Shown here piece by piece: positions 1,109-11,224 of a DNA stretch of 11,224 bases (the first letter of the stretch is position 1; the number at the start of each line of letters is the position of its first letter). The position numbers and the translations under genes are program-made. The stretch comes from Candidatus Omnitrophota bacterium (GTDB taxonomy: Bacteria > Omnitrophota > Koll11 > Gygaellales > Profunditerraquicolaceae), in contig JAQUNE010000036.1 of NCBI GenBank assembly GCA_028717765.1, forward strand, positions 1 to 11,224. The letters run 5' to 3'. The notes beneath the pieces are model-generated. The model made no database searches. It worked only from the letters and a program-made list of their open reading frames with translations, and was not told the origin of the DNA.

Positions 1109-2200
1109 TTATCTGCGTAAGTAATTTGCAACTGCTGCCTGCCCTAAAGAAAGGGCGCTATCACTGCTCGATAGCTCTTTATGGGTGACCACATTAAACC
1201 CAGTATTACATAATAACTCCAAACTTAAATCAAGTAAAAGCTTATTTTGGAAAACCCCTCCCGAGAGGACGATCTGCTTAATTGCGCTTTTTTCCCTTAA
1301 AATTAAGCAGGTTTGCTGAATCATTTTAGCTACCGTCTGATGAAATCTATAGGCGATTTTTTCATTTGCCTCCGCGGCCTTTAAGTCCGCAACTATCTGC
1401 CTAAACATCGTTTTTGGATCAATTATATAAATACCTGCTTTTTTACGGATATTAAAACTGTACCCTGTGGCGCGCGAGGTGCAACGAGAAGCTACTTTTT
1501 CCAGCTCCATCGCCAATTCTGCTTCTCGACTAACCTGGTATTTTTTTAAAACTAAACTTCCTGCGGCGTCAAAAAGCCTGCCCATACTGCTGGCCGCAGG
1601 GGTATTAAAATTCAAGGCATACATTTTCTTTAACCCCTGCCATTCTTTTTTGTAAGGCGCAGGATAAAATTTAAAATCTAGCCAGGCACAAGCCAACCTC
1701 CAGGGTTGGCGGATTGCTGCTTGCCCGCCCAAAAGTGGGATCTGCCTTAAATGCGCCATTCTCTGGTAACGCTGATAATTACAAATCAGAAACTCTCCGC
1801 CCCAAAGAGTTCCATCTCCGCCTAAGCCGGTCCCGTCAAAGGCTACACCGATTACCTTCTGATTTGGTAATTTATTTTCTGCCATACATGCACTAATATG
1901 GGCGTGGTGGTGCTGTACTGGCTGGTACCTATAACCACCAGGGCCAAGGTTTAAGCCGAACTTGGTGGACTGATATTCTGGATGCAAATCATAGGCAATA
2001 ACTCTTGGCTTCTGCTTAAGAAAATATTTTGCCTCTTTTTCAAAGGCAGATAAATCTTGCGGATTATCCAAATCACTATGCACCGGGCCTATATAGGCGA
2101 ATTTACCCCGGGCAAAACAAAGGGTGTTTTTTGTCTGAGCGCCCAGAGCGAGAATCGCTTTATTGACTTTAAATGGTAAGGGTACTTTTTTCAGTGTCAT
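1109..2200 (-). CDS. hypF: Stand-alone HypF C-terminal (Kae1-like carbamoyltransferase) domain protein
   Basis: Full-length HypF (about 750 residues) makes the cyanide ligands of [NiFe]-hydrogenases. Its N-terminal acylphosphatase, zinc-finger and YrdC domains form carbamoyl-adenylate, and its C-terminal Kae1-like half transfers the carbamoyl group to HypE. This 363-residue protein has only the C-terminal half. Visible motifs are LALGAQTKNT (17-26), DLHPEYQST (71-79), QHHHAH metal ligands (96-101), FDGTGLGGDGTLWGGEF (121-137), SSMGRLFDA (204-212) and LSGGVFQN (312-319). The final metal/ATP motif reads SSSDSALSLGQ (344-354), where HypF usually has a DGG core; the Asp is kept. The ATG overlaps the pabC stop as ATGA, and pabC fills the upstream DNA, so the N-terminal half is absent here. 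The clean domain boundary and intact motifs argue for a split protein rather than a decayed gene. Confidence 0.88.
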   Translation of the reverse strand: MTLKKVPLPFKVNKAILALGAQTKNTLCFARGKFAYIGPVHSDLDNPQDLSAFEKEAKYFLKQKPRVIAYDLHPEYQSTKFGLNLGPGGYRYQPVQHHHAHISACMAENKLPNQKVIGVAFDGTGLGGDGTLWGGEFLICNYQRYQRMAHLRQIPLLGGQAAIRQPWRLACAWLDFKFYPAPYKKEWQGLKKMYALNFNTPAASSMGRLFDAAGSLVLKKYQVSREAELAMELEKVASRCTSRATGYSFNIRKKAGIYIIDPKTMFRQIVADLKAAEANEKIAYRFHQTVAKMIQQTCLILREKSAIKQIVLSGGVFQNKLLLDLSLELLCNTGFNVVTHKELSSSDSALSLGQAAVANYLRR

Positions 2201-2952: not shown

Positions 2953-4312
2953 TAATTGCCTCCACCATCCCCCTGCCCTTTACCAGGGTTTCCTGATATT
3001 CTTCAAGCGGGTCGGAATCCGCGACAATTCCACCGCCTACCCCAAAATAAAGTTCTTTACCCTTTTTTAAAATTGTGCGGATCATAATATTAAAATCCAT
3101 CTTTCCGCAAAAACTTAAATACCCCAATGCCCCGGTATAGATCGCGCGTTTATCCGGCTCTAATTCATCAATGATCTCCATGGCGCGGATCTTCGGGCAA
3201 CCGGTGATTGACCCGCCGGGAAAACAGGCACGCAATAGATCAAACCTGTTACTACCTTTAAATAGCCTTCCTTCAATAGTGGCAGTAGTCTGGTAAACTG
3301 TGCGATACTCTTCTAATTGCCGAAGCTTTGTCACCTTGATCGTATCATAATCGCAAACCTTGCCTAAATCATTCCTCTCTAGGTCAACAATCATAATCAG
3401 TTCTGCTTGATCTTTAACACTATCCAAAAGCTCTTTTCTTAAACATGCATCTCTTTTCTTATTGGGGCTGCGCCCACGCGTACCTTTCATCGGCCGGGTA
3501 ATTACCCTATCGCTAGTCAACTGAAGAAATCTCTCCGGAGAAGAACTGAGGATCTGAAAATCCCCGGCATCAAAATATGCGCTGAAAGAAGCGGGGTTGG
3601 CCTTTCTTAAGCGACGGTAAATTTCAAGGCTACTTAAATCTGTCTTACTTTGAAATCTCTGGGAAAGATTCACCTGATAGATATCTCCTGCCTTGATATA
3701 CTCTTTGGCCTTTCTTACCGCACGCAGGTAATTTTCTTTAGTAAAGTTAGATTCTAACCTAAAGATCTGATTTTCTTTCTGAATGCTTTTTTCATGCTTC
3801 TGCAACTTTCCGCTCTCAAGGATAATCTTACTGATCCTACGGAAATTCGATTCGGCTAATGTTTTTGCCAAAGCAGAACTCTTTTCCGGAAAACCTGTTG
3901 CGCAGATAAAAAAAACTTTTTTCAGATGATCAATAATAATTACCGTATTATAAAAATGAAACAAGCATTCCGGAACCGCAAGAGCGGTTTTTTCCCGCGG
4001 CTTAATTTTTCCCTCTAATCGCACGCCCAGATCATATGCCAAATACCCCACTGCGCCTCCGATGAAGGGGGGAGCCCCAGGAATTGCTGGCAAATAATAA
4101 TTTTTAAATGCGGCGGCGAGCTTTTGAAAAGGTGTAGAGCCGCTTATACTTAACTTTAAGAATGGCTCAATACCAAAAAAAGAATAGCGGCCGGTATTTT
4201 GCAGTTGCAGGCTGGAATCCAAAAAGAATGCCCCTTCGTAATCAACGAAATTTTGCCAGAGAACCGCGGGGTCGAATTCAAGCTTATATGACTTCCAGAT
4301 GTAATATGCCAT
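2942..4312 (-). CDS. pabB: Aminodeoxychorismate synthase component I (PabB)
   Basis: A chorismate-utilising enzyme that aminates chorismate to 4-amino-4-deoxychorismate using ammonia from a glutaminase partner (PabA or a shared TrpG). The 456-residue product is full length. It has the N-terminal TrpE/PabB region with GRYSFFG (41-47) and GAVGYLAYDLG (86-96), then the chorismate-binding domain from about 190. That domain carries SSSPERFL (256-263), RPMKGTRGR (273-281), DLERNDLG (310-317), FPGGSITGCPK (364-374) and GVGGGIVADSDP (424-435). K276 in the MKGT motif is the lysine that marks PabB; anthranilate synthase TrpE has alanine there. No amidotransferase gene is in the window. The start overlaps the exonuclease gene by 29 nt, and no later Met fits the domain. 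An anthranilate or isochorismate synthase is less likely. Confidence 0.92.
   Translation of the reverse strand: MAYYIWKSYKLEFDPAVLWQNFVDYEGAFFLDSSLQLQNTGRYSFFGIEPFLKLSISGSTPFQKLAAAFKNYYLPAIPGAPPFIGGAVGYLAYDLGVRLEGKIKPREKTALAVPECLFHFYNTVIIIDHLKKVFFICATGFPEKSSALAKTLAESNFRRISKIILESGKLQKHEKSIQKENQIFRLESNFTKENYLRAVRKAKEYIKAGDIYQVNLSQRFQSKTDLSSLEIYRRLRKANPASFSAYFDAGDFQILSSSPERFLQLTSDRVITRPMKGTRGRSPNKKRDACLRKELLDSVKDQAELIMIVDLERNDLGKVCDYDTIKVTKLRQLEEYRTVYQTTATIEGRLFKGSNRFDLLRACFPGGSITGCPKIRAMEIIDELEPDKRAIYTGALGYLSFCGKMDFNIMIRTILKKGKELYFGVGGGIVADSDPLEEYQETLVKGRGMVEAINGT
2959..2963 (-). promoter_or_regulatory. Shine-Dalgarno GGAGG of pabC inside the end of pabB
   Basis: The reverse complement reads GGAGG six bases before the pabC ATG at 2952, within the last codons of pabB. 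It supports the overlapping start over a later one. Confidence 0.6.
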
Positions 4313-5105
4313 CTATCCTAAAGGAGCGCTCCTCGTTTCTTAAAGAACAAAAACCCACAAGATAACTGTAATTGTTTTCTTTCTTGATCTCTTTCGGAAT
4401 CACTTGCCTTTCTGTAACTTGCGCGCTGGAAGAAGAAAGATATTTAATTTTTATTCTCAAGGCCTGCGAGATCGCTTCTTCTATCTGGGCAATTCTCTCT
4501 GCATTGATATTTTGCAAAAGCAGTGGATTAAGCATAAAGAGGTTGGAGAAATTTTTGAAATCCGTCACCCCCTTAGAGGTTAAGATTTCTTTTAGCCTGG
4601 AGAATACCTCCCAGGTAATTTCTACATCAGAGAAAGCGCGGTGCTGCTGCTGCTCTTTAATCCCCAGCCGCTGGGCAACAAACCAGAGCGCGTAACGCTC
4701 TAATTGCGGCAGCAGCCTTTTTGCCATTTTTAAAACATCTAAAACAATGATCTCTGGGGGAAAATCTTTCTTTAAAAGCTTTAATTCATTTTGTAAAAAT
4801 TCTAAGTCGAAGGCAGCATTATAAGAACACAGGCAACTTCCTGAGATAAATTCTAAAAACTTAGGCATAACCTCAGAAATTAAAGGCGCACCTGCCAACA
4901 TTTCCTCGCTGATCCTGTTGACCGCGAAAGCGCCAGGAGAAATCTGCCGCTGCGGATTGACCAGCGTGGTAAAAGTAGCTAATTTTTCCTTCCCGCGAAA
5001 CCTAATTCCTGCAATTTCCACGACCCTATCCCCTGTACGCGGTTCAAGGCCAGTGGTTTCAGTATCGAAAATCGTAATCTCTACCTCATCAATATGTTTA
5101 TTCAT
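4284..5105 (-). CDS. DnaQ-type DEDDh 3'-5' exonuclease with C-terminal WYL-like domain
   Basis: Residues 8-175 form a DnaQ/PolC-epsilon type exonuclease. Metal ligands are visible as D14 and E16 in FDTETTG, D100 in SYNAAFD, and H155 and D160 in HRAFSD, so all DEDDh residues are present and the enzyme should be active. The C-terminal part (about 207-273) is not part of the exonuclease. Its pattern of an IKY strand, T-x-R-x-V-x-P (231-237), a YLVGFC strand (248-253) and a basic/acidic stretch ending RSFRIDGI (260-267) matches a WYL domain, a ligand- or nucleic-acid-sensing SH3-like module. The 273-residue protein is therefore a probable repair or DNA-processing nuclease with a sensor domain. 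It is not a replicative epsilon subunit fused to a polymerase. The start overlaps the DUF2156 stop as ATGA. The substrate is unknown. Confidence 0.85.
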   Translation of the reverse strand: MNKHIDEVEITIFDTETTGLEPRTGDRVVEIAGIRFRGKEKLATFTTLVNPQRQISPGAFAVNRISEEMLAGAPLISEVMPKFLEFISGSCLCSYNAAFDLEFLQNELKLLKKDFPPEIIVLDVLKMAKRLLPQLERYALWFVAQRLGIKEQQQHRAFSDVEITWEVFSRLKEILTSKGVTDFKNFSNLFMLNPLLLQNINAERIAQIEEAISQALRIKIKYLSSSSAQVTERQVIPKEIKKENNYSYLVGFCSLRNEERSFRIDGILHLEVI

Positions 5106-6837: not shown

Positions 6838-7983
6838 CTACTTGGGAAGGGCGCTGTTAATCATTTCTGCGCGGGCATGGGCCACTTCACAGAAATATTC
6901 AACCGGGGTATCCATTGATCCGGTTTCTAAATGCGCATGGGCAGGACACCAAATACAGAGATTAACTAAGGAGCATTTACGGCACTTCTCTAAAAATTCT
7001 TTCTTATTTGAACGCAAGTCCCTAACCTGTGTAACAAAATTCTTCCAGATCTGATCTAAATTACCGTCCCTAAGATCACAAATACACGACGCATGCCAAA
7101 GCGAGGAACAAAGCCGGAAAAATCCATCGTAACTTACGGTGAAACTGCCATTTCCGGTACCACAGTGAAAAAGATGATTGCAGTTAAAATGTTCGAACTC
7201 CGGATTGATCAATTCATTACATCCATTCTTTAAAGCACCGTAGCGTTCAGAGTCCGCATGTTCAATAGCAACGATCTCTTTGGGAGAAAGGCGCTCTGAT
7301 TTTATTTCTTCATTCCTTTTTTTATCCGCATCAAAACGCAGGTGTAGAAACGGGTCAAAACGAAAATAGTCTTTGGTCCTTTCCCGGCAGAACTGCGAAA
7401 TTAGAGGCAATTCATGCACATTAGAACGGATTGCCATAGCCTTATAGCGCACCTTGACCCCATTATCAAGTAACATCTTTAGCCCACGCATGAAAGCAGC
7501 ATAAGAACCTTTCTTTCCGCTTACCTTTTCGTAAGTTTCCTCGGTAACTCCATAGACGGTCACCTCGATATCCCGAGGAGGATATTTCTTAAACAAATCA
7601 ATGTGCTTCTGATTTATCAGCGTGGCATTGGTAAAAACTGAAATAAAAAGCCCTTTTTTCTTCAGGTACATATAAATTTCAAAAAAATCTTCTCTTAAAA
7701 GCGGCTCCCCTCCGGTAAGCAGGCACCATAAAGCACCCAAAGACACAGCTTGGTCGGCAATCTTCTGAATCTCTTGAAAAGAGATTTCTTTTTTCTTTGC
7801 CCCTGGGTCATCTTTGGGCAAATTAATATAACAATGCCGGCAGCTGTTGTTACAGCGCGCGGTAAGCTCCAGGTCAAAAGAAATAACGTTGCGGTTATTA
7901 CGCATTTTCTCCCAAACCGGAAATTCCGGTAAGGAAAGTGAAGATACAAAGGATTCGCTATTTTGCGATTTATTATTTTCCAT
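6838..7983 (-). CDS. Radical SAM/SPASM domain protein (distal copy)
   Basis: A 381-residue radical SAM enzyme with a C-terminal SPASM domain, the architecture of peptide-modifying maturases. The N-terminal core has CNNSCRHC (44-51), whose three cysteines hold the SAM-cleaving 4Fe-4S cluster, GGEP (91-94) for SAM amine binding, and FTNATLI (117-123). A middle stretch around 215-235 has the RN-x-E-x-I then RLSPKEI pattern. SPASM cysteines include C274 (in FHCGTGNGS), C292, C334, C337, C343, C346 and C365, enough for auxiliary clusters. The end, TPVEYFCEVAHARAE (359-373), is shared with the upstream paralogue. The ATG shares one base with the stop of the S26-like gene (TAATG). The substrate is unknown; the PqqD-like neighbour suggests a peptide. 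Confidence 0.93.
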   Translation of the reverse strand: MENNKSQNSESFVSSLSLPEFPVWEKMRNNRNVISFDLELTARCNNSCRHCYINLPKDDPGAKKKEISFQEIQKIADQAVSLGALWCLLTGGEPLLREDFFEIYMYLKKKGLFISVFTNATLINQKHIDLFKKYPPRDIEVTVYGVTEETYEKVSGKKGSYAAFMRGLKMLLDNGVKVRYKAMAIRSNVHELPLISQFCRERTKDYFRFDPFLHLRFDADKKRNEEIKSERLSPKEIVAIEHADSERYGALKNGCNELINPEFEHFNCNHLFHCGTGNGSFTVSYDGFFRLCSSLWHASCICDLRDGNLDQIWKNFVTQVRDLRSNKKEFLEKCRKCSLVNLCIWCPAHAHLETGSMDTPVEYFCEVAHARAEMINSALPK

Positions 7984-8501
7984 TAGAGTATGGGTTTAAG
8001 TGTATTCCTAATTGGCATCGGTATCCTCCTCCAGCACCAGACTAAAAATGGTAGAATCCTCTTACGGCTCAAGAGAACAATCAGGGCTTCTTCCTTCCCC
8101 AGCCCCAAACGTACCTTACGGCCTTTTCTTTCTATTTTTGAAACAAACCCCAGAAGGTTCTCATTCGGAATAAAACCATCCGGGTAAAACAGGCTATCGC
8201 CTTTAATCAGATAACAACCTTTAAGCTGTTTGATCACTCTGTGAATAATCAGCTTCTCCGCGCAAGGATGCATAAAAGCCACTGCCTTGCCAAAGAGCGT
8301 TTTTGCGCAAGATAACGGAGAGATCGTCACGATATCACCGTCTCTGATAAAAGGCGACATACTAAATCCCTTGACCAGAAAGCGGAAAGGTACGCCTTTT
8401 TCCAGCGTTGCCCTCAGAAGCTCGCCTAGCGCTTTTCCGGAGAGGAACAATTCCTCATCGCTGACTACGCAAAATTCTGATTTAGCCTCTTCCAACTTCA
8501 A
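7983..8501 (-). CDS. S24/S26 family signal-peptidase-like serine peptidase
   Basis: A 172-residue protein with the LexA/signal peptidase fold. KGFSMSPFIRDGDIV (44-58) contains the SMxP nucleophile box (S47). IIHRVI (85-90) has His where bacterial LepB has Lys, as in Sec11/SipW-type enzymes. IKGDSLFYPDG (99-109) gives a possible D102. I see no N-terminal membrane anchor; a hydrophobic stretch lies near the C-terminus (about 138-158), interrupted by basic residues. This could be the leader protease of the cassette, but that is inference from context. The frame has no ATG before the catalytic box. The TTG at 8501 lies inside the end of the pqqD-like gene (20-nt overlap), with AAAAGGAAG at 8509-8517 seven bases away. 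A TTG two codons further in is also possible. Confidence 0.82.
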   Translation of the reverse strand: MKLEEAKSEFCVVSDEELFLSGKALGELLRATLEKGVPFRFLVKGFSMSPFIRDGDIVTISPLSCAKTLFGKAVAFMHPCAEKLIIHRVIKQLKGCYLIKGDSLFYPDGFIPNENLLGFVSKIERKGRKVRLGLGKEEALIVLLSRKRILPFLVWCWRRIPMPIRNTLKPIL

Positions 8502-8793
8502 CCAACATCTTCCTTTTGATTAATTCCTGAGTTAAGCCTAAAAGGTCTTTTTCAATCGCATTGGATTCGGCGTCAAAATCCGCGCTCAAATCTTTTGCCA
8601 CCTGTTTTAGGTTTTTTTTGCCGTCTAACCTATCCCAGATCGCCCTTCCTGTTTCATTGAGGGTAAAAATCTCATCCTCTAAATCACCGATACCAGAAGT
8701 GATCGGGATGATAATAAATTCCCCTTGAACCTGGCGCGCCACCACATCTTGTGAAGGCACATAAATTTTTTCTAAGCTTACTTTTGCTTCCAT
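8482..8793 (-). CDS. PqqD-family peptide-binding chaperone (RRE domain)
   Basis: A 103-residue PqqD-like protein. PqqD-type RREs are winged-helix domains that hold the leader of a precursor peptide and present it to a radical SAM enzyme. The N-terminal strands are around 10-30. The typical helical part follows: FTLNETGRAIWDRLDG (43-58), NLKQVAKDLSADFDA (61-75), and a terminal helix with DLLGLTQELIKRKMLV (83-98). It lies between two radical SAM genes and the peptidase-like gene, which is what one expects for a RiPP-type pathway. A strong SD supports the start. Its presence implies a peptide or protein substrate, but no precursor gene is visible nearby. Confidence 0.88.
   Translation of the reverse strand: MEAKVSLEKIYVPSQDVVARQVQGEFIIIPITSGIGDLEDEIFTLNETGRAIWDRLDGKKNLKQVAKDLSADFDAESNAIEKDLLGLTQELIKRKMLVEVGRG
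8509..8517 (-). promoter_or_regulatory. SD-like AAAAGGAAG supporting the TTG start of the S26-like gene
   Basis: Located in the end of the pqqD-like coding region, seven bases before the TTG at 8501. The S26 frame has a stop at 8520-8522 and no ATG between that stop and the catalytic serine box, so a TTG start is required here. Confidence 0.5.
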
Positions 8794-8808: not shown

Positions 8809-9996
8809 CTATTCTTCTACCTTTTTTGCACATAGTTCATCAATTCTTTCTTTCCAGTTTTCTACTTCCCAGGCTACTTCATTTTCTCTCACCAGCCCCA
8901 AGAATCTTGCCTGGGCATGGGCAATTTCACAAAGATATTCAATCGGCGTATCCAATGTACCGTACTCAGACCAGGATTTTGCCGGGCACTGCTCGCAGAG
9001 CCCTTTTAAAAAACAATGCGCGCAACGCTTAAGATAATCTTTATTCTGGGCTTTTAATTTCCTGACTTCAGGAAAAAAATTTGTTACCGCATCTTCCAGC
9101 GAGCCTTTTTTTAGATCATAAATTGTTTGCGGATGCCGCAGCATCATGCAGGGCTGAAAAAATCCGTAGGCATCGACACACCCGCTGGAATTGCCCGATC
9201 CGCAGGAAAAAAGCGTATCGCCCGAGGAACGCATGAATTTAGAACAAAACTCCTGCATCCCTTTTATATATTTATTTTTTTTCCGGGTGAGGACTCGTAA
9301 ACCTTCTTCCGCAGAAAGACGGACTTTTTTGATCTGCTGGCTCTTGGCATCCCTTCTACAACGTAGGTCAAAAAACATCGAATAAGATGGCGGCTGTCCG
9401 TCCATCCAAGGGATGTTTTGCGACCAAACCTCAAATTCGTCTATCTCATCTTTATTCTTCGGCAAAAGCGCGCCCTTTACGACAAAAGGGATTTTGTGTT
9501 TACGCAAAAGGTCAATTCCCCTAAAAGCGGCAGCAAACGAACCCTTGACACCAGTTGCCGCTTCGTAAGATTCTTCTTTCATGCCATAAACAGTAACTTC
9601 CATTTTTTCTCGGGGTGGAGTATGGGCAAACATTTGCGCTAACTCCGGAGTAATTAAGCTGGCATTGGTAAAGATCATCACTTTTAGACCAGACCTTCTA
9701 GCAAAAAGATAAAGCTCTGTAAAATCTTCCCTTAAAAGCGGCTCGCCGCCAGTGAATCTCACGGTCATACAGCCTAAAAGGGCCGCCTCTTTTAAAATCT
9801 CTTTTATCCGGTCAGAAGAAAGCTCTCTTTTTTTTGCCGCGAGGTCATCCTTGGGCAAATTAATACAACAATGGACACAGTTATTATTACAGCGCTCGGT
9901 TAATTCCAGATCCAGCCAGCCTAAAACAGGTTTGAGGCTTTTCTGAAATACTGGCTTATCCCCTTTTGCTATTGAAACGTAAGATTCGCTTTTCAT
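8809..9996 (-). CDS. Radical SAM/SPASM domain protein (proximal copy)
   Basis: A 395-residue paralogue of the gene at 6838-7983. The core has CNNNCVHC (36-43), followed by a fourth Cys, FTGGEPLLREDF (81-92) and IFTNASLI (108-115). The sequence after the cluster motif, INLPKDDLAAKKRELS (45-60), is nearly the same in the paralogue and looks like a subfamily signature. SPASM-type cysteines include C265, C283, C325, C328, C334, C337 and C356, ending in TPIEYLCEIAHAQA (350-363). About 30 extra, charged and coil-like residues follow that motif and are absent in the other copy. The ATG overlaps the kinase stop as ATGA. It probably acts on a peptide presented by the PqqD-like protein; the reaction (thioether, C-C link, epimerisation or other) cannot be read. 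Confidence 0.93.
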   Translation of the reverse strand: MKSESYVSIAKGDKPVFQKSLKPVLGWLDLELTERCNNNCVHCCINLPKDDLAAKKRELSSDRIKEILKEAALLGCMTVRFTGGEPLLREDFTELYLFARRSGLKVMIFTNASLITPELAQMFAHTPPREKMEVTVYGMKEESYEAATGVKGSFAAAFRGIDLLRKHKIPFVVKGALLPKNKDEIDEFEVWSQNIPWMDGQPPSYSMFFDLRCRRDAKSQQIKKVRLSAEEGLRVLTRKKNKYIKGMQEFCSKFMRSSGDTLFSCGSGNSSGCVDAYGFFQPCMMLRHPQTIYDLKKGSLEDAVTNFFPEVRKLKAQNKDYLKRCAHCFLKGLCEQCPAKSWSEYGTLDTPIEYLCEIAHAQARFLGLVRENEVAWEVENWKERIDELCAKKVEE

Positions 9997-10877
9997 TTTA
10001 TAGTTTTTTTCAGTAAACCAATGATCTCTTTGTCTTTGTTAAACTTCTGTACATAACAGGGCACTCCCTGCGCTATCTGTTCGACCAGAACAAGTGTTTT
10101 CTCCCACCAATCCGTAGTAACAAACGGTTTGATCAGGCAACTTAAGATCCTTTTTGTGACTTCATTTTTATCCGTTAATGGTATGAGTCGATTCTCCGGG
10201 GCTTTTTCCAGAAAAAGCAGCGCCTTTAAAGGTACGGATTTTCCTGAAACTGTCGGAACGTCTCCATGGCTCCATGTACCGTAGGCCTTGAATTTCCCGT
10301 TTACCTTGCGTACAATTATCCGGTCATCACAGAGGATATCCGCGTCATCCTTTAAAATCCCCGCCATTGTAGATTTCCCCGCTTCAGAGTGCCCGACAAA
10401 AAGTAACCCCTTGCCATTGAGATCCACCCCGCAGGCATGTAAATAGCAACCCTGTCTGTCCGCCAAAATACGGGCAATCAATATTTGATCGGTAGGAAAA
10501 AGGGTCAGTGAATGTAGCCCGCCTTTTATAAAATGTTCGTCGCGGTCATTATAGATCCTGGCATGGGTATGGTCCTGATTAAAAACTGCAACCCGGTGCA
10601 GGCTCTTATCCTCCGGGGTAGGTGAAATACCTAAATATACCCAAGAAGAATTATTTTTGTAAACTGCCCAGGGTGCTTTACGATAAACTTCTTTACCTAA
10701 ATCCTTATCTTTTAATTCAGGTAAGGAAAAATGGTGCCTGATCGTAACAATATCCTCTCCGGGTTTTTCTGCACTAAAAAAATTAAACTTGGGGTGAAAA
10801 GTCTGGTCAGTAATCGGCAAGTCCGCTTCGACCTGAATGGTAATATCAGCGATTTTAAAGTAACGACGGTGATTCAT
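9993..10877 (-). CDS. Possible separately started HPr-kinase-like protein (internal start in the fused frame)
   Basis: Inside the SPASM-kinase frame, an ATG at 10877 (MNHRRYFKIAD) sits 7 nt after a perfect AAGGAGGG. From there the product would be a complete 294-residue HprK-like kinase. Numbered from this Met, the P-loop GHSEAGKS is at 162-169, CDDR at 183-186 and HGD at 204-206. The radical SAM paralogues end roughly where this domain starts, so the original arrangement was probably two genes. Whether the cell makes the fusion, the free kinase or both cannot be decided from the sequence. Confidence 0.6.
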   Translation of the reverse strand: MNHRRYFKIADITIQVEADLPITDQTFHPKFNFFSAEKPGEDIVTIRHHFSLPELKDKDLGKEVYRKAPWAVYKNNSSWVYLGISPTPEDKSLHRVAVFNQDHTHARIYNDRDEHFIKGGLHSLTLFPTDQILIARILADRQGCYLHACGVDLNGKGLLFVGHSEAGKSTMAGILKDDADILCDDRIIVRKVNGKFKAYGTWSHGDVPTVSGKSVPLKALLFLEKAPENRLIPLTDKNEVTKRILSCLIKPFVTTDWWEKTLVLVEQIAQGVPCYVQKFNKDKEIIGLLKKTIK

Positions 10878-11224
10878 CAGCCAACCCTCCTTAAATTTTT
10901 TGTTTTCTTTAGCCACCGTACAAAGATAATCTATCTTTGCCGTAAATTTCCCATGCTCTAGATAACTATAGACAGGACAAACCCGGCAATTCTGCCTTTG
11001 CTCACAAGCTCCACAGTTATCCTTATACTCTTTCGTAATTTTTATTTTTTTCCCTAATGAAGGGATAAAATTATCCCAGGCATCCTGAAAATTCCCCTTA
11101 CGTAGATCATAACGCAGCTGGGGATCCTTAATAAAACAGCAAAAAGTCATTTTGCCGTAAGGGTCAACATGAAAATCTCTGCGAGAATCTACGCATGAAC
11201 TAAAAAGATACTGATCCGTCTTTG
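9993..11224 (-). CDS. Radical SAM SPASM domain fused to HPr-kinase-like domain (5' end cut by window)
   Basis: The open frame continues past the right edge; 409 residues are visible. The first part (about 1-110) is a SPASM domain. It begins with QYLFSSC, continues with a DPYGKMTFCC segment, and then shows CGACEQRQNCRVCP and a final DYLCTVA. This is the same cysteine pattern as the two radical SAM paralogues downstream, so a radical SAM core very probably lies outside the window. It runs without a stop into a 294-residue HPr-kinase-like domain: YFKIADITIQVEADLPI at its start, then HACGVDLNGKGLLFVGHSEA leading into the P-loop GHSEAGKS, then CDDR, and GTWSHGD further on. HprK-like kinases in RiPP clusters can phosphorylate precursor peptides; that role is inferred here. 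Residue Met at 11150 is internal, not a start. Confidence 0.85.
   Translation of the reverse strand, partial: KTDQYLFSSCVDSRRDFHVDPYGKMTFCCFIKDPQLRYDLRKGNFQDAWDNFIPSLGKKIKITKEYKDNCGACEQRQNCRVCPVYSYLEHGKFTAKIDYLCTVAKENKKFKEGWLMNHRRYFKIADITIQVEADLPITDQTFHPKFNFFSAEKPGEDIVTIRHHFSLPELKDKDLGKEVYRKAPWAVYKNNSSWVYLGISPTPEDKSLHRVAVFNQDHTHARIYNDRDEHFIKGGLHSLTLFPTDQILIARILADRQGCYLHACGVDLNGKGLLFVGHSEAGKSTMAGILKDDADILCDDRIIVRKVNGKFKAYGTWSHGDVPTVSGKSVPLKALLFLEKAPENRLIPLTDKNEVTKRILSCLIKPFVTTDWWEKTLVLVEQIAQGVPCYVQKFNKDKEIIGLLKKTIK
10885..10892 (-). promoter_or_regulatory. Strong internal Shine-Dalgarno at the SPASM-kinase junction
   Basis: The reverse complement reads AAGGAGGG seven bases before the in-frame ATG at 10877. 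In the fused frame the bases encode Lys-Glu-Gly at the domain boundary. It is among the best SD matches in the window, unlike most of the coupled starts, and supports independent initiation of the kinase. Confidence 0.7.

What the first reader, a model, noticed from the sequence alone, without database searches (positions are those of the whole stretch)
9993..11224. In-frame SPASM-HprK-like kinase fusion with a built-in second start
The SPASM tail of a radical SAM enzyme runs without a stop into an HPr-kinase-like domain. A perfect AAGGAGGG and an ATG (10877) lie exactly at the domain border. The two radical SAM paralogues in this window end near the equivalent position, so a stop codon seems to have been lost while the old ribosome binding site remained. 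One gene could give both a bifunctional maturase-kinase and free kinase.
Basis: partly seen in the sequence, partly recalled or inferred. Interest (0 to 1): 0.72.

Follow-up and report, generated by a model that had tools for sequence, protein, structure and literature searches.

The report
Fused peptide-tailoring enzyme: radical SAM plus kinase
The gene is a genuine, widely shared fusion of two peptide-modifying enzymes in Omnitrophota bacteria, and it sits in a little-known pathway that appears to tailor, and probably phosphorylate at their very last residue, whole families of small cysteine-rich peptides.

Summary
Window 9993-11222(-) is one open frame, a SPASM tail running into an HprK-like kinase, with AAGGAGGG and an ATG (10877) at the border. 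The fusion is neither an assembly error nor recent: all 120 listed homologues span the junction, 113 of them at 560 aa or more. The 'lost stop, old ribosome site' story is not supported: the junction Met occurs in 6 of 121 aligned sequences, SD plus ATG in 2 of 20 distinct junction DNAs, and on the tree it is a late gain in the window's small clade. Internal initiation there remains possible.

What it is: a bifunctional maturase of a RiPP system (three radical SAM enzymes, PqqD-like RRE, signal-peptidase-like protease; in relatives also an ABC exporter, NTP_transf_5 and Cys-rich precursors with a WxxPxL leader). Precursor cores vary, but 119 of 120 listed homologues end in Ser or Thr, as do 138 of 144 from Omnitrophota genomes. 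Kinases of phospho-lasso peptides phosphorylate exactly the C-terminal Ser, so I infer the same here. Closest known: those kinases and 'linear polyphosphorylated peptides' (LPP), described without radical SAM enzymes. No activity was tested.

The parts
9993..11222 (-). radical SAM/SPASM-HprK-like kinase fusion gene, 3' 409 codons plus stop (5' part outside the window)
   Evidence: open frame; 120 of 120 listed homologues span the junction
10878..11222 (-). SPASM end of the radical SAM half; its C-terminal helix runs straight into the first kinase strand in the full-length model of P0001
   Evidence: NCBIfam TIGR04085 17.6 bits (below its cut-off 27); invariant Cys; model (mean pLDDT 81.3)
9996..10877 (-). 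HprK-like kinase domain (294 aa)
   Evidence: TIGR04249 ScmC 1.3e-10, Hpr_kinase_C 6.9e-4, both below curated cut-offs; model pLDDT 93.4; HprK/PEPCK fold
10437..10439 (-). catalytic-type His (kinase residue 147)
   Evidence: invariant in 32 of 32 rows
10368..10394 (-). P-loop GHSEAGKST (kinase residues 162-170)
   Evidence: G162, S164, G167, K168, T170 invariant in 32 rows
10320..10328 (-). DDR motif (kinase residues 184-186)
   Evidence: D184 invariant, D185 and R186 at least 90% in 32 rows
10885..10892 (-). internal Shine-Dalgarno-like AAGGAGGG (codons Lys-Glu-Gly)
   Evidence: read directly; AAGGAGG plus ATG shared only with L008/L037 among 20 distinct junction DNAs
10875..10877 (-). internal ATG at the domain border
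   Evidence: Met in 6 of 121 aligned sequences
8809..9996 (-). second radical SAM enzyme of the cluster (395 aa)
   Evidence: PF04055 3.5e-21; ScmE 88.7 bits (below its cut-off 400)
8482..8793 (-). PqqD-like RRE (leader-binding protein)
   Evidence: PF05402 1.1e-13, over its cut-off
7983..8501 (-). archaeal-type signal-peptidase-like protease, probable leader peptidase
   Evidence: TIGR02228 46.5 bits (cut-off 51.85); Ser (SMSP), His (IIHRV) and Asp (KGDS) read by eye
6838..7983 (-). third radical SAM/SPASM enzyme
   Evidence: PF04055 1.5e-23; SPASM 20.3 bits, just under its cut-off 21.5

Best explanation
The gene encodes a bifunctional RiPP maturase. A PqqD-like RRE binds the [W/Y]xxPx[L/I] leader of small Cys-rich precursors. 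The radical SAM half, with the two partner radical SAM enzymes, modifies the Cys-containing core (type of bond unknown). The fused HprK-like kinase phosphorylates the hydroxyl of the precursor's C-terminal Ser or Thr. The NTP_transf_5 enzyme may then decorate that phosphate, the signal-peptidase-like enzyme removes the leader and the ABC exporter exports the product. Shown here: fusion, domain architecture, motifs, gene neighbourhood of relatives, precursor family, near-invariant C-terminal Ser/Thr. Inferred: substrate, phosphorylation site, order of steps. In the window's own small clade an internal start may additionally yield free kinase; this is possible but unproven.
For: Fusion. Kinase core with His, P-loop Lys and Asp-Asp, the residues reported as essential in lasso kinases (passages of PMC9266682; PMC10368454). 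Fold. Precursors: in L037, the closest relative with a genome (same gene order as the window), a precursor lies just upstream of the fusion; in 11 of 17 separate-gene kinase loci a small Cys-containing ORF lies directly before the kinase, and the profile search adds three more. C-terminal Ser/Thr: 119 of 120 and 138 of 144, against 33 of 362 for long ORFs and 17.7% at positions -28 to -2. Co-occurrence in 384 Omnitrophota genomes: 43 of 45 precursor genomes hold the kinase against 63 of 339 others; 101 of 106 kinase genomes hold NTP_transf_5 against 34 of 278 others. Leader motif [YW]xxPx[LVIAFYM] in 120 of 120 and 128 of 144.
Against: No biochemistry. Related kinases BsfK and LppK phosphorylate Ser3 of the core, not the last residue, so the kinase family alone does not fix the site. 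Two precursors that look intact end in Gly (L086) and Tyr (L095), and the small ORF before the kinase in L023 ends in Gly. G037 and G227 hold precursors without a kinase match, perhaps through incompleteness. Kinase scores lie below every curated cut-off. The co-occurrence tests are not corrected for relatedness, some precursor matches are weak (G107 E 0.009, G234 E 0.004), and the precursor profile was built partly from kinase-adjacent genes. The window itself shows no precursor (best profile match E 0.17); it ends inside the fusion gene.
Confidence: 0.72

Rival explanations
1. One reading: two neighbouring genes recently fused by loss of a stop codon, and the old ribosome binding site still makes free kinase.
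For: SD plus ATG exactly at the domain border. Most free kinases start near this position.
Against: Every listed homologue spans the junction; SD plus ATG is absent from 18 of 20 distinct junction DNAs and nested inside the fused clade, so it is a gain, not a relic. At the mechanically chosen starts of five distant free kinases one (L048) has AAGGAG, so such a site is not typical of the separate genes.
Confidence: 0.04
2. The internal start is real but new: in the window's clade (window, P0001, L037/P0002) one gene makes the fusion and free kinase.
For: 2 of 1,898 internal in-frame ATGs carry AAGGAGG, namely these two. Between window and L037 four-fold third positions agree in only 33% of 82, yet both SD codons are the same (AAG/AAG at 5 of 33 conserved Lys, GAG/GAG at 1 of 14 conserved Glu, this one). 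The piece folds on its own in prediction. G355 has a single kinase match, the fusion.
Against: Post hoc test on one pair of sequences; the Lys-Glu codons belong to a conserved FKExW helix, so only two synonymous choices and one Met are needed. An AGGAGG-ATG inside the L001 radical SAM core shows that such sites arise by coincidence. Six of the 13 fused genomes have one kinase match and seven have more (at most six candidates scored each), so there is no clear rule that a free kinase is needed. No expression data; DNA of P0001 was not seen.
Confidence: 0.3
3. The kinase half regulates carbon metabolism as a true HPr kinase/phosphorylase.
For: HprK-type P-loop core; TIGR00679 25.1 bits.
Against: Far below the cut-off of 240; fused to a peptide maturase; separate-gene relatives mostly lie beside precursor genes; co-occurs with NTP_transf_5.
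Confidence: 0.04
4. The kinase phosphorylates an internal core Ser (as LppK or BsfK do) and the terminal Ser/Thr is kept for another reason, such as RRE, exporter or radical SAM recognition.
For: BsfK and LppK act on Ser3 (passages).
Against: Counted from the C-terminus, no other position approaches the conservation of the last residue: Ser/Thr 0.13-0.33 at -2 to -12 against 0.96 at -1. Positions counted from the leader end were not tested.
Confidence: 0.15

Closest known systems
Linear polyphosphorylated peptides (LPP; Nat Commun 2026, PMC13381572; section 6 read whole, otherwise passages)
   Same: Archaeal-type signal peptidase as leader protease, discrete RRE, HprK-like kinase, NTP transferase, MsbA-like exporter, [Y/W]xxP leader, conserved leader with variable cores.
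   Different: No radical SAM enzyme is mentioned ('radical SAM' and 'rSAM' occur 0 times in its main text), its kinase acts on Ser3, its leader reads YxxPxVLxHQ..., and it is described mostly from Bacillota; here three radical SAM enzymes, a fused kinase, Cys-rich cores and a terminal Ser/Thr.
Paeninodin-type lasso peptides with kinases PadeK/ThcoK/SyanK and PsmK/PsmN (PMC9266682, PMC8498205, passages read)
   Same: HprK-like kinase with His-Lys-Asp-Asp, terminal Ser as the conserved site across otherwise unlike precursors, nucleotidyltransferase partner, RRE.
   Different: No lasso cyclase match among the window's 14 genes, nor an Asn_synthase match on the cluster's contig in the sister genome; radical SAM enzymes instead; kinase fused to one of them.
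SynChlorMet (Scm) cassette of NCBIfam
   Same: HprK-like ScmC, PqqD-like ScmD, two radical SAM/SPASM enzymes ScmE and ScmF (model names seen; that ScmC is HprK-like is from its matches here and recall).
   Different: All far below the equivalog cut-offs (ScmC 41.1 of 125, ScmE 88.7 of 400, ScmF 87.7 of 400, ScmD 26.6 of 100); separate models, none fused. No paper on it was found.

Membership tests
Radical SAM/SPASM peptide maturases | radical SAM core with CxxxCxxC | tested here: met
   P0001 PF04055 81.7 bits over 29.5; CxxxCxxC in 108 of 113 homologues of 560 aa or more. For the window's own gene this part lies outside the window.
Radical SAM/SPASM peptide maturases | SPASM domain with auxiliary cluster cysteines | tested here: inconclusive
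   Profile scores below cut-off, but CxxCx5CxxCP in 110 of 113 and seven Cys of that region invariant in 39 rows.
Lasso-type HprK-like peptide kinases (PadeK/ThcoK) | His-Lys-Asp-Asp catalytic motif | tested here: met
   in 120 homologues P-loop 120, Asp/Glu-Asp-Arg or Asp-Glu-Arg 120, His in its motif 114; motif described in PMC9266682 passages
Lasso-type HprK-like peptide kinases (PadeK/ThcoK) | precursors sharing a C-terminal Ser | tested here: met
   Ser or Thr in 119 of 120 and 138 of 144; 23 of the 120 and 7 of the 144 are Thr
Lasso-type HprK-like peptide kinases (PadeK/ThcoK) | phosphorylation of that residue | not testable with these tools
   needs biochemistry
Lasso peptides | lasso macrolactam cyclase (Asn_synthase-like) in the cluster | tested here: not met
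   none among the window's 14 genes; in sister genome G355 PF00733 matches lie on contigs C2, C57 and C43, not on C1 with the cluster
LPP | SpI + RRE + HprK-like kinase + NTP transferase + MsbA-like exporter | tested here: inconclusive
   SpI-like (just under its cut-off), PqqD and kinase (under cut-offs) in the window; ABC exporter in sister L037 and NTP_transf_5 about 6 kb from the fusion in its genome; the window does not reach those genes
LPP | leader YxxPxVLxHQxIxFETxxS | tested here: not met
   leader here WxxPxLIxLxRGKPEExVLxxCK in relatives
LPP | no radical SAM enzyme among its core genes | tested here: not met
   three radical SAM genes
HPr kinase/phosphorylase (TIGR00679) | score over curated cut-off | tested here: not met
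   25.1 of 240 bits
SynChlorMet ScmC (TIGR04249) | score over curated cut-off | tested here: not met
   41.1 of 125 bits

The most novel reading that the evidence does not exclude
An undescribed class of RiPPs: radical-SAM-modified, Cys-rich peptides phosphorylated (perhaps phosphoglycosylated) on their last residue, made by one fused maturase-kinase that serves many dispersed precursors in one genome (18 with a complete end read in G355; a relative with another leader and a more distant kinase, G255, has 34), with, in the window's clade, an evolved internal start that releases the kinase as a second product.
Probability: 0.5. Interest if true: 0.78.

Novelty: new variant of a known kind. Interest (0 to 1): 0.6.

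Why it matters
If true, it adds radical SAM chemistry to the phosphorylated RiPPs known from lasso peptides and LPPs, physically joins the two chemistries in one protein, and gives a sequence rule (last residue Ser/Thr beside an HprK-like kinase) that finds hundreds of precursor candidates, largely in an uncultured phylum. It makes a simple test possible: does the kinase add phosphate to the last residue?

Tried and rejected
Rejected: assembly error or hidden stop (120 of 120 listed homologues span the junction, without indel there); raw reads were not available. Rejected: relic ribosome site. Rejected: ordinary HPr kinase or Scm cassette member by score. No precursor was found in the window by pattern, among small ORFs or by profile (best E 0.17). 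The pattern missed L037's divergent precursor, which I saw. The NCBIfam and Pfam libraries gave no good match for the precursors (37 members; single weak hits at E 0.017 or worse, among them an SSH RaS-RiPP model at 0.031 and a paeninodin family model at 0.068). PF27840, named for these proteins, was not reported by the Pfam copy here. In one search four rows of alignment A1 (L012 twice, L018, L019) were set one codon off, so they lack their last residue; this cannot favour Ser/Thr ends. In one search the script's ATG flag tested the codon after the right one; I read the ATGs from the printed letters. HPr kinase chains were among the Foldseek matches but not among the 50 rows shown, which are all PEP carboxykinases. 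The Scm search listed only unrelated uses of the abbreviation; one search listed general radical SAM papers. PMC9902471 (passages) reports expressed biosynthetic clusters in Omnitrophota and radical SAM proteins as tailoring enzymes in general; the passages name no kinase fusion.
Full report
What is in the window. The minus-strand frame 11222-9993 is open without a stop for 409 codons and runs off the window's end. Its first part is the SPASM end of a radical SAM protein; from the Met at 10877 on it is an HprK-like domain. AAGGAGGG stands 7 bases before that ATG. Downstream on the same strand follow, tightly packed, a second radical SAM enzyme, a PqqD-like RRE, a signal-peptidase-like protease and a third radical SAM/SPASM enzyme, and then genes that look unrelated (tRNA-binding domain, CxxCxxCC protein, LPG synthase C-terminal-like, exonuclease-WYL, chorismate-binding enzyme, aminotransferase, HypF C-terminal part, HypC, HypD).

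The fusion is real and old. The homologue search gave 3193 proteins at E<=0.001; the best 120 are listed, all span the junction, 113 are 560 aa or longer, and of the 12 listed with an organism name 9 are called Omnitrophica or Omnitrophota. There is no indel at the junction. In 384 Omnitrophota genomes 13 hold it over most of its length. Domain motifs are intact in nearly all: P-loop in 120 of 120, the acidic-Asp-Arg motif in 120 of 120, the His motif in 114 of 120, the radical SAM Cys motif in 108 of 113 of the long ones. No whole genome is held for the window; the closest relative with one is G355 (locus L037), 80% identical over 407 aligned residues and with matching neighbours along the window.

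The internal start. The junction residue is Lys in 97, Arg in 8 and Met in 6 of 121 aligned sequences. Of 20 distinct junction DNAs only the window's and that of L008/L037 have AAGGAGG plus ATG. A tree of 48 kinase domains puts window, P0001, L037 and P0002 in one small clade (100/98) inside the fused clade, and the other three Met-bearing proteins in a second one, so the Met was gained twice; the bootstrap had not settled, 21 of 45 inner branches are open and long branches meet at the root. The relic story therefore fails. The site is still not trivial: 2 of 1,898 internal in-frame ATGs in 357 ORFs have AAGGAGG, and they are these two, and the SD codons agree between window and L037 although four-fold sites agree in only 33%. 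Against it, the Lys-Glu codons sit in a conserved FKExW helix so little is needed to make the site, an AGGAGG-ATG occurs by coincidence in the L001 radical SAM core, and the test was made after seeing the site. I give 0.3 to its being used.

The substrates. L001 carries four small ORFs with a shared leader around its fusion gene, and L037 has one just upstream. A profile of 11 such ORFs found 682 proteins at E<=1; of the best 120, which are listed, all have WxxPx[LVIAFYM] in the leader and 110 have exactly three Cys in the core, 104 have Cys at position -7, and 119 end in Ser (96) or Thr (23); the one exception, P0205, ends in Phe. These 120 represent 90% clusters, not independent events. In fetched Omnitrophota DNA a profile found 153 distinct ORFs, 139 ending in Ser/Thr; leaving out 5 that run off the end of a stretch and 4 under 45 aa gives 138 of 144, of which 16 have no Met start in my reading. 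Of the 6 others, L086 and L095 look intact; L133, L136 and two in L073 look broken. Long ORFs of the same loci end in Ser/Thr in 33 of 362. Precursors with a quite different leader in G209 and G255 obey the rule too (25 of 25, 34 of 34). Of 17 separate-gene kinase loci mapped, 11 have a small Cys-containing ORF directly before the kinase, 10 of these ending in Ser/Thr and one (L023) in Gly; the profile adds three (for L045 through L036, L050, L051).

Partners. Ten flanking genes from seven loci were scanned; six, one each from L001, L038, L040, L041, L042 and L049, are NTP_transf_5, and in the seventh locus, L037, the scanned gene is an ABC exporter lying just upstream of the precursor. G355 has one NTP_transf_5, about 6 kb upstream of the fusion. 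Over 384 genomes 101 of 106 with the kinase also have NTP_transf_5, against 34 of 278 without; 43 of 45 with the precursor have the kinase, against 63 of 339. These counts are not corrected for kinship.

Reading. Put together this is a RiPP pathway with the parts list of the linear polyphosphorylated peptides published in 2026 (section 6 of PMC13381572 read) plus three radical SAM enzymes, with the kinase fused to one of them and a last-residue Ser/Thr instead of Ser3 as the likely site. The type of cross-link made by the radical SAM enzymes cannot be told from sequence. Searches for HPr kinase with radical SAM and precursor peptide, for Omnitrophota with RiPP or radical SAM, for HPr kinase with RiPP, and for HprK-like/HprK-related kinases listed few papers; passages of five (PMC4289311, PMC8498205, PMC9902471, PMC10368454, PMC13381572) were read, the others seen as listings, and none seen describes this system. 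The library lacks most subscription journals.

Noticed in passing
window 1109-2200 (-): HypF here shows only the C-terminal Kae1-like carbamoyltransferase domains (363 aa); the sister locus L037:1703-2794 has an ORF of the same length. The N-terminal HypF domains were not looked for elsewhere.
   Followed up: no
window 4284-5105 (-): Exonuclease (RNase_T) joined to a WYL domain in 273 aa; an ORF of the same length stands in L037:4815-5636.
   Followed up: no
L121-L132 (G255) and L110-L120 (G209): Many RiPP-like precursors with other leaders (such as DPDQAILQVCK and NPEQAVLSCC), several in a row and spread over many contigs; the 59 with a complete end all end in Ser.
   Followed up: partly
L001:9406-10437: 343-aa ORF with a signal-peptidase-like start (read by eye) and a longer second part; no Pfam match at E 0.001.
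   Followed up: no
L040, L041, L042 (gene after the kinase): NTP_transf_5 joined to a Peptidase_S24-like stretch, in L042 also to a methyltransferase domain: further fusions among the tailoring enzymes.
   Followed up: no
G018:C128 and G176:C3: Kinase and NTP_transf_5 matches with the same bit scores (308, 156.4) in two genomes, as if one stretch were shared or cross-contaminated.
   Followed up: no
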